Part shown: positions 12,513 to 19,010 of the stretch, piece after piece
How the letters are laid out: each line of letters starts with the position of its first letter
Numbering within the stretch: the first letter of the stretch is position 1
NCBI GenBank assembly: GCA_947589195.1
Contig: CANPZX010000006.1
Coordinates: 1-39,073, forward strand
Length of the DNA: 39,073 nt
Source of the DNA: an uncultured Bacilli bacterium
Lineage (GTDB): Bacteria; Bacillota_I; Bacilli_A; RF39; UBA660
Reading direction: 5' to 3'
The notes under the pieces: model-generated
Database searches by the model: none
Told to the model about the DNA's origin: nothing
What the model saw: the letters and a program-made list of their open reading frames with translations, nothing else
Made by a program: the position numbers and the translations under genes

Positions 12513-12527
12513 ATTTTCACTCCAAAA

Positions 12528-12703
12528 TAAAACCCAAAGGTAAGTCTGCTTGGATAAAATCCCGCTCGCTCGCAGGTGGGCATCACATGTGTACTTTAGG
12601 ATTCTAGCGACACTTAATGGGCTAGCATTCTACACCGCACAACAATTAGATTCCCGTATGTATCCATAGTCGGTTTTATGTGAAACAAACTATATCTTTA
12701 GGT
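12528..12703 (-). ncRNA. ssrS: 6S RNA (ssrS/bsrA-like)
   Basis: A non-coding transcript of about 175 nt. A closing stem pairs 12696-12703 with 12532-12539 (8 bp, one G-U). A second stem pairs 12683-12691 with 12543-12551 (9 bp). An open central region follows, with a small hairpin on its 3' side (12552-12562). A long upper arm includes pairs 12589-12593/12631-12635 and an apical stem 12604-12608/12621-12625. This rod with a central bubble is the 6S RNA layout that sequesters sigma-A RNA polymerase. In Bacillus 6S-1 RNA lies by the tcdA homologue (yrvM), near rarA and aspS, which supports the call. Its GC content is higher than its surroundings. SRP RNA, tmRNA and RNase P hallmarks are absent. 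The 3' end is approximate. Confidence 0.78.
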
Positions 12704-12709
12704 AATTTA

Positions 12710-16770: not shown

Positions 16771-16797
16771 GAAAAAAAGATTGAATTAACAATCTTT
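16771..16797 (-). terminator. Terminator of the phase-variable surface gene
   Basis: AAAGATTG (16776-16783) and CAATCTTT (16790-16797) form an 8-bp stem with a 6-base loop. On the minus strand it runs directly into a T run. The stop codon of the surface gene overlaps the stem. Confidence 0.75.
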
Positions 16798-18953
16798 AAG
16801 ACAAACTTATTAGATAAGGATTACTTGATGAACCGATATCTGAAGCTTCTAGATTATCATTGGCTATAATTACTTCAGGTTTTAAGTAAATAACTGGCGC
16901 GACAGTTTCCACATAGTCGGCAGGATGGCCGTCAACTAAGCCTTCCCACAAAAGATCAACATAGATGCCATTAGACGAGCCTGGCGAAAGAGTCCATTGA
17001 TTATAATCTTTGTTTAATAACCAATCGGTATTTGCACAATCAGTTCGATAATCAGATTCATATTCATACCATTTATATAATTCTTTATTTAAACATTGTT
17101 CCCTACTATATGTATCTCCACCTCCGGTAGCATAACCGTAATCGCTTGAATACATTAATCCTACCTCTCCTTGCCATAGGGTTGGACGCGGTGTTTGTAA
17201 ACTTTCATTAGTATATACTGTTATTCCTCTTTCATAATTATACTTTGATTTTGTATTATCACTTCTTCCTGCATTTCCTCCTAAATTCCATATTATTTTA
17301 TCTATCATCTTTTTAGCTTTATCGGTTAAACCAGTTTCACTAAAATCACATGGAGTTGTTGCATTATTTCGACCGGTGGGGCAACTCCCACTTGTTCGAT
17401 TATAATAGGCTCCTTTATTTAATAATTCTTGTAATCTGGAATCACTCCAATCATTACTTCCTCCCCATGAGTATATTGATGAACCAGTTCCACTTGGTTT
17501 ATTATCCCATGATAAATCTAAATATAATGGATTTGCCTTAATTAACTTAACTCGTTGGCCCTCTGGAGTATTGACTAAACCGATTATTCTAAATTCTGTT
17601 ATTAATTCATCTTTATTATGAGCAATTTTACATATTTCACATTCTTCTTTATTTGATATATAATCATTTTCATTATAATATAAATAATTATATAATGGTA
17701 TTTCATAGCATCCTTTTGCTATTGTTTCACCAGATGCTTCTGCATTTTTACTAGCTTGATTACATTTTTCCAATGAATCATATCCTTGACCATGATTATC
17801 ATCAGTGACTGAATATCCTAACTCACATTCTTTGGTAATGGTTAAACCTTCGGGGATACTTTCTTCAGATTTTAACATCTGCAACATTTGATTACATATT
17901 TCTGATGTCGGAAATATATAATAATCTCTTCGCCCTTCAAGCTTCAATTCTAAAATATATCGGTCTTTCCTACTTTTATCAAAAGCATAGCCATCGACTT
18001 CCTCGTTTTCTTGACAACCTCTTAATATATGTGAATCTAGCCCACTATCAAATTCACATAAATCTTTCCCATAAGGTTGGGAATAATATTCTTTATAATA
18101 TAATGTTTCAGAATATCTTTCACCAAAACTAACATAATTATTAGGATTTTCTCCAAAGTAGCGATATTCCGTCATTTTTAGATTAGCTTTTACTGTTTCA
18201 TTATCTAATCCTAATTTAGTATACTCAGGATTATCGGCAATATCCGCATCATCATGACTTACCTTTATTACTCCACTACCTTCTACGGTATCAGCTTCTT
18301 CAATTGCTAAATTTTTTACTAAATCCACTAAATAATTTGGTTCTTTCGCATAACTAAAAATAATGCTTACTTTACTTTTATATGTTGCGTCCATTGAGTC
18401 TTTATCTTCAGCTGTTACATCGCCATGCATCCAGATTCTTAAATCATAGGTTATTTCTTCTTTAGGATTTAATATACCTGTAAGTAATTCATATGAGCGA
18501 ACTGCTCCATCAATTGTCGGAGTAACTTGTAATTTATTTTCTAATTTAACTGTTACTTTACTTTTATTTTTGACGCTTAAATTAGCTTTTATATATTTTT
18601 CTGGTAAATACTTGGGAGTTTCTTCTGTTGAATCTTCAATTGTTTCAAGGTTTATTTGATATGAGGCCCAATCATCTTCACAGACATTGGATATGGTGAA
18701 AGTATATGGTGTACCTTTCATGCCATCACTATCACTCATTGGATATCCATGATCGATGGTTATCCCCTCATTTTCTTCTTTAAATGAAATTTGAAAACAA
18801 TCAGTATTTAAAATATTTCGATTACTTTGTTTTTCACTTATTCTCCAATAGGCATAAGTTACACCAATTACTAAAGTTATTAAAAGGATTATTAAACTTA
18901 ATAGTTTAATTTTACTCTTAAATAACCCCCCCCCCTAAACGTGTTTTTATCAT
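16796..18953 (-). CDS. Probable phase-variable surface protein, frame broken at a G10 tract (OFF as sequenced)
   Basis: Promoter, AAAGGAG site and ATG at 18953 (9-base spacing) start a frame MIKTRLGGG that hits a stop two codons after a run of ten G (18926-18935). Removing one G joins it to a long frame: a charged start, the membrane/signal segment LIILLITLVIGVTYAYW, then about 680 residues, 718 in total. The N-terminal part (to about 230) is beta-rich and resembles proteins with TYAY-type signals. The C-terminal half, including FRIIGLVNT, SWGGSNDWSDSRLQELLN and PVIYLKPEV-NPYLISL, resembles DUF6273-type surface domains. The longest uninterrupted frame, from ATG 18739, has no ribosome site and no signal, so it is not the natural start. 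Slipped-strand switching is inferred; a homopolymer sequencing error is the alternative. Confidence 0.75.
18926..18935. repeat. Homopolymer G10 (coding strand) phase-variation tract
   Basis: Ten consecutive C on the plus strand, i.e. ten G in the mRNA sense, at codons 7-9 of the surface gene. I saw no comparable G/C run elsewhere in this AT-rich window. Lengths divisible by three (9 or 12) give the open frame; 10 does not. Confidence 0.85.
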
Positions 18954-18980
18954 CTTTAACATCTCCTTTATTCTATAGAA

Positions 18981-19010
18981 ATAATAACATAAATTTTATA
19001 TTTATGTAAA
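18981..19010 (-). promoter_or_regulatory. Promoter of the phase-variable surface gene
   Basis: On the minus strand TTTACA (19005-19010) and TATTAT (18981-18986) are 18 bases apart. Transcription should start near 18974, about 20 bases before the ATG at 18953. This supports 18953 as the true start. Confidence 0.6.

What the first reader, a model, noticed from the sequence alone, without database searches (positions are those of the whole stretch)
18926..18953. G10 tract switches a large surface protein off: probable phase variation
Seen: promoter, ribosome site and ATG (18953) read into ten G, then a stop two codons later. One G fewer joins to a 718-codon frame with a membrane/signal segment directly after the tract. 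A ten-G run in this AT-rich DNA, exactly at codons 7-9 of a surface gene, is the classical layout of slipped-strand phase variation (as in Campylobacter or Neisseria contingency genes). Such switching is seldom described for Mollicutes-like gut Bacilli.
Basis: partly seen in the sequence, partly recalled or inferred. Interest (0 to 1): 0.88.

Follow-up and report, generated by a model that had tools for sequence, protein, structure and literature searches.

The report
Poly-G switches gating a surface-protein repertoire
A run of ten Gs switches off a surface-protein gene in an uncultured Tenericutes-like bacterium, and it is one of about 80 such runs in that genome, many of them in front of genes that a mutation-writing retroelement appears to diversify, so the cells seem to keep a large variable coat that is mostly off and switches on at random.

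Summary
G10 lies at 18926-18935 (minus strand), codons 7-9 after ATG 18953, with TAA two codons later. Only G9 or G12 joins the 709-codon frame downstream.

It is not an isolated oddity. The genome holds 80 runs of G>=8 (about 0.4 expected by chance), mode G10, with a gap at G6-G7. They mark two paralogous surface families: A (25 tracts, including the window gene) and B (38), plus glycan genes and promoters. In 22 congeneric genomes, 18 carry tracts in -35/-10 promoter spacers (reversed-pattern control zero). A ribosome cannot act there, so length switching of DNA is the best explanation. Of 82 near-start coding tracts, 8 are ON (all G9) and 67 are G10 OFF. The OFF genes remain intact and under purifying selection (dN/dS about 0.24).

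Unexpectedly, family B carries diversity-generating-retroelement (DGR) variable regions at its C-terminus. Relatives have the RT, Avd and template; the RT is not in this 88.6%-complete assembly.

Best reading: default-off poly-G phase variation, layered in family B on DGR hypermutation. Read-level length mixtures could not be tested. I found no paper linking the two. New variant of a known kind.

The parts
18926..18935 (-). G10 tract, codons 7-9 (+1 base) of the surface-protein gene; the switch
18951..18953 (-). probable start codon ATG (another in-frame ATG at 18960-18962)
18963..18969 (-). Shine-Dalgarno AAAGGAG
18981..19010 (-). promoter-like TTTACA (19010-19005), 18-nt spacer, TATTAT (18986-18981)
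   Evidence: read; consensus resemblance only
16796..18925 (-). 709-codon open frame joined only at G9/G12: hydrophobic segment, N-domain (1-269) and C-terminal module (445-709) shared with paralogues; no Pfam, NCBIfam or PHROG match
18845..18925 (-). basic plus hydrophobic segment LFKSKIKLLSLIILLITLVIGVTYAYW, signal/anchor-like, conserved in family A
18918..18920 (-). TAA that ends the G10 reading frame

Best explanation
The G10 run is a hypermutable phase switch. Replication slippage to G9 (or G12) fuses the start codon to a 709-codon surface protein; G10, G8 and G11 give a short peptide and no protein. The gene is one of a large repertoire in this genome: families A and B, about 63 tract genes with distinct flanks. 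Their register makes the commonest length, G10, an OFF state one step from ON, so most copies are silent in the consensus and a few are ON. Family B copies also end in DGR variable regions, so their binding end is probably rewritten by adenine mutagenesis while the tract decides whether the copy is made. Shown: sequences, frames, tract distribution, conservation, VR signature, DGR loci in relatives. Inferred: slippage in living cells, surface location, expression, and that a DGR RT works in this genome.
For: 80 G>=8 runs against about 0.43 expected, with a gap at G6-G7. 81 of 82 near-start tracts need n divisible by 3; 8 are ON, all G9; lengths 7:1, 8:4, 9:8, 10:67, 11:2. 48 promoter tracts sit between TTGACA and a -10-like hexamer, with G8-G11 giving spacers of 14-20; the reversed-pattern control is zero in all 22 genomes. 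Glycan-locus tracts are ON in an ATP-grasp TupA gene, a sugar-transfer ATP-grasp gene and one acyltransferase, and OFF in a second acyltransferase. dN/dS is about 0.24 for close pairs (dS<0.6) in families A and B, nearly all OFF. The family B C-terminus varies at codon positions 1 and 2 while position 3 is nearly fixed. A template inferred from those VRs found the TR next to RT and Avd in G008 and G007. The G008 cis VR differs from its TR at 14 of 27 A but 1 of 48 other bases; 26 G000 VRs differ from the G008 TR at 64% of A against 14-18% of other bases.
Against: No read-level length mixture and no second isolate of the species could be examined. MutS is intact, which lowers slippage in short tracts, although PMC4085013 saw no MMR effect for G10-G13. 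Tracts interrupted by an A still carry open frames of about 330-360 codons (L168, L177, L178). Coding tracts are more concentrated at G10 than promoter tracts (82% against 60%, p=0.012). No DGR RT was found in this assembly.
Confidence: 0.86

Rival explanations
1. Programmed slippage: G10 is the functional length, and RNA polymerase or the ribosome shifts on it to make a fixed small share of full-length protein.
For: 67 of 82 near-start tracts are exactly G10, and 81 of 82 need a length divisible by 3 in several species and families; the OFF genes are intact and under purifying selection. Inverted-repeat arms flanking the tract covary in relatives.
Against: The same runs sit in promoter spacers, where no frame exists, and there too the mode is G10, so G10 looks like the resting length. 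G7, G8, G9 and G11 alleles exist in the same families. Glycan genes carry tracts in both states. The window gene and family A in this genome lack the CCTCC motif and the CCC arm. The arms pair across the tract, so a ribosome on the tract would open them.
Confidence: 0.09
2. Assembly or sequencing error: the true tract is G9 and the gene is simply on.
For: Homopolymers are error-prone; several contigs end at or in tracts.
Against: Dozens of tracts in many independently assembled genomes show the same mode, with G8, G9 and G11 at others. G10 is common in promoters too, where no frame could bias it.
Confidence: 0.02
3. Decayed pseudogenes fixed OFF by a frameshift.
For: About 90% of near-start tract genes are out of frame.
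Against: Nearly all fetched downstream frames are full length, and dN/dS is about 0.24. The only fault is the tract, one slip from ON in nearly all cases.
Confidence: 0.02

Closest known systems
Campylobacter jejuni poly-G/C contingency genes (29 loci with tracts of 7 or more in NCTC11168, PMC4965091)
   Same: G8-G11 tracts inside reading frames of surface and glycan genes, with ON and OFF by length
   Different: 80 tracts of G>=8 in 1.35 Mb; long paralogous surface families with a shared default-off register; MutS present; DGR-type variable regions in about half of the tract genes
Neisseria promoter-spacer poly-G switches (porA, PMC3639595)
   Same: G tract in a promoter, so its length sets the spacing
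   Different: Found here in 18 of 22 species of an uncultured genus, beside coding tracts of the same length
Candidatus Mycoplasma girerdii (PMC5476646)
   Same: Uncultured Mollicute in which BspA-like surface genes phase vary, with read-level length variants shown
   Different: Mainly dinucleotide repeats there; no DGR link in the passages read
Diversity-generating retroelements of cellular genomes (PMC8144416; Treponema denticola PMC4891356)
   Same: RT, Avd and TR cassette in relatives; adenine-specific VRs at protein C-termini
   Different: About 35 dispersed VR matches in one genome, in a family whose members each carry a poly-G switch; RT not in this assembly

Membership tests
Slipped-strand (SSR) phase-variable contingency locus | Mononucleotide tract far longer than chance, placed where length sets the frame or promoter spacing | tested here: met
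Slipped-strand (SSR) phase-variable contingency locus | Length differs among paralogues and related species with the ORF otherwise intact | tested here: met
   lengths 7-11 among near-start tracts; intact frames; dN/dS 0.24
Slipped-strand (SSR) phase-variable contingency locus | Reversible length change within one population, with ON/OFF expression | not testable with these tools
   no reads, no second isolate of the species, no expression data
Diversity-generating retroelement targets (family B; not the window gene) | VR with adenine-specific differences from a TR | tested here: met
   the TR used is from congener G008
Diversity-generating retroelement targets (family B; not the window gene) | RT, Avd and TR in the same genome | tested here: inconclusive
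   met in congeners G007 and G008, and RT plus Avd in G017 and G019; not found in G000, whose assembly is 88.6% complete
Diversity-generating retroelement targets (family B; not the window gene) | C-type lectin or Ig fold around the VR | tested here: inconclusive
   model pLDDT 67, VR part under 50, no PDB match
Programmed frameshift or transcriptional slippage | Fixed slippery length with stimulator and product from the off-frame allele | tested here: inconclusive
   lengths vary 7-11 and promoter tracts argue against; product not testable

The most novel reading that the evidence does not exclude
A two-layer diversity system: one DGR acting in trans rewrites the C-terminal binding region of dozens of dispersed surface proteins, and each copy has its own poly-G switch set off by default, so every cell shows a small random subset of an ever-changing repertoire, a bacterial analogue of clonal receptor expression.
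Probability: 0.6. Interest if true: 0.86.

Novelty: new variant of a known kind. Interest (0 to 1): 0.74.

Why it matters
Poly-G contingency loci are best known from host-adapted Proteobacteria. Here an uncultured Tenericutes-like genus that keeps the mismatch-repair gene mutS carries up to 80 in one small genome, in coding, glycan and promoter positions. Coupling a per-gene switch to DGR hypermutation would join two of the fastest known ways to vary a bacterial surface. It makes testable questions of why DGR targets multiply, how many are shown per cell, and what selects against ON. It also warns that gene callers will miss or truncate these proteins in metagenome-assembled genomes.

Tried and rejected
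AlphaFold of the window protein failed (pLDDT 32). The family B model gave no PDB match, and no solved chain matches by sequence. Viral contigs held no relatives. Loss of mismatch repair as the cause: not supported, MutS in 20 of 22 genomes including this one. I first thought CCTCCCAAC was read in different frames in different genes; on checking start codons it is mostly in the same frame (LPTSG/LLTLG), so that argument was dropped. Shine-Dalgarno pairing with CCTCC: complementarity exists, but covariation is not significant (72 of 500 shuffles reach it).

Full report
OBSERVATION. The minus strand reads ATG ATA AAA ACA CGT TTA G10 TTATTTAA. With ten G the frame ends at TAA two codons after the tract. 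With nine or twelve it runs on for 709 codons through LFKSKIKLLSLIILLITLVIGVTYAYW.

SCALE. The genome (1.35 Mb, 90 contigs, 88.6% complete) has 80 runs of at least eight G, against about 0.43 expected from base composition. In 364 kb of fetched stretches, G or C runs fall to 5 at length 6 and none at 7, then rise to 63 at length 10. All 22 genomes of the genus have G9+ runs, as do 106 of 193 in the family.

WHERE THEY LIE. 75 tracts have distinct flanks. I sorted them by flanks and downstream protein: 25 in family A (the window gene; hydrophobic start, then N-domains and varied bodies, some with DUF285 repeats), 38 in family B, and 12 others. The others include a contig whose sugar-related genes carry mid-gene tracts in both states: TupA-like ATP-grasp (ON), sugar-transfer ATP-grasp (ON) and two acyltransferases (one ON, one OFF). 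They also include intergenic tracts, one of them between TTGACA and TATAGT (L035).

PROMOTERS. Searching TTGACA, 4-9 bases, G7 in the genus gives matches in 18 of 22 genomes and none for the reversed pattern. Of 48 distinct cases read (the scan of fetched sequence allowed 0-10 bases before the tract), all have a hexamer matching TATAAT at 4 or more of 6 places, and the spacing is 14-20 bases. The best hexamer was chosen over a range of spacings, so single cases are weaker than the set. Tract lengths there are 8:4, 9:10, 10:29, 11:5. A promoter has no reading frame, so this class argues for DNA length switching and gives a frame-free baseline whose mode is also G10.

DEFAULT OFF. Of 82 coding tracts near a credible start, 81 need a length divisible by three. 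Eight are ON, all G9; 74 are OFF, 67 of them G10. Against one in three, p is about 1e-6, but paralogues are not independent, so this is descriptive. My reading is that G10 is the resting length, set mainly by mutation, and that register or selection keeps it OFF one step from ON. The excess of G10 over the promoter class (p=0.012) hints at selection or paralogue homogenisation on top.

NOT PSEUDOGENES. Downstream frames are long and unbroken in nearly all complete cases. Close paralogue pairs (dS below 0.6) have a median dN/dS of 0.24 in both families. The genes are therefore, by inference, expressed often enough to be selected.

DGR LAYER. The last 50 residues of family B vary at 12 or so codons, at positions one and two, while position three is nearly fixed. 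From these alone I inferred a template. It matched 35 places in G000, all by my reading variable regions, and places beside a reverse transcriptase in G008 and G007. There the template lies between Avd and RT; PHROGs names them Reverse transcriptase and Avd protein of DGR. The G008 cis variable region differs from its template at 14 of 27 adenines and 1 of 48 other bases; 26 G000 regions differ from the G008 template at 64% of adenines and 14-18% of other bases. No RT was found in G000, which may be incompleteness or loss. In G008 and G019 the target beside the RT has no tract, so the switch is a feature of the dispersed copies. Seven family A members end in a second VR-like block; that is a lead, not a test. 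The window gene itself ends differently and shows no VR.

AN UNEXPLAINED EXTRA. In relatives, the bases before the tract pair with bases about 15-40 nt after it, and the pairing covaries (0 of 500 cross-species shuffles reach it). Its role is unknown. The window gene lacks the CCC arm.

MECHANISM. Shown: the tract, the frames, the distribution and the comparison. Inferred: slippage in cells, surface display, and benefit. Immune or phage selection against ON cells would fit but is untested. Rival: programmed slippage at G10, which I put at 0.09.

LITERATURE. No paper in the open library holds both 'diversity-generating retroelement' and 'slipped-strand', or 'RF39' and 'phase variation'. 26 hold DGR and 'phase variation'; by the titles and abstract openings of the 20 listed none links a poly-G tract to DGR targets, but I did not read them. 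The closest case in Mollicutes is Ca. Mycoplasma girerdii.

Noticed in passing
L114:4754-8468; L113:45-2543; L115:195-2190; L116:5359-8653: DGR cassettes with Avd and RT in four congeneric species; template seen between them in G007 and G008, and template-like sequence in G017 and G019.
   Followed up: yes
L144, L161, L165, L185 and others, about -12 to +60 around the tract: Inverted-repeat arms flanking the G tract covary between species; function unknown.
   Followed up: partly
L047 (G000:C18:4000-22500): Sugar/acyl-transfer gene cluster with five G8-G10 tracts, three ON and two OFF.
   Followed up: partly
L037:278 and L037:1256: Two near-identical intergenic G10/G11 tracts upstream of similar gene starts, followed by CATTAAAAAAATAAGG; not a simple TTGACA spacer.
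   Followed up: no
G008 family B genes, e.g. L189-L191, L193: Many contigs end at or inside the G tract, so tract genes are systematically broken in assemblies.
   Followed up: no
L130 (G002:C10): A run of 48 G at or near a contig end, probably an artefact.
   Followed up: no
L040, L057, L072, L073, L078, L079, L089: Seven family A proteins end in a second VR-like block (WVxRGG...FRLVL), perhaps a second DGR target type.
   Followed up: partly
window 12527-12707 (-): 6S RNA (RF00013).
   Followed up: no
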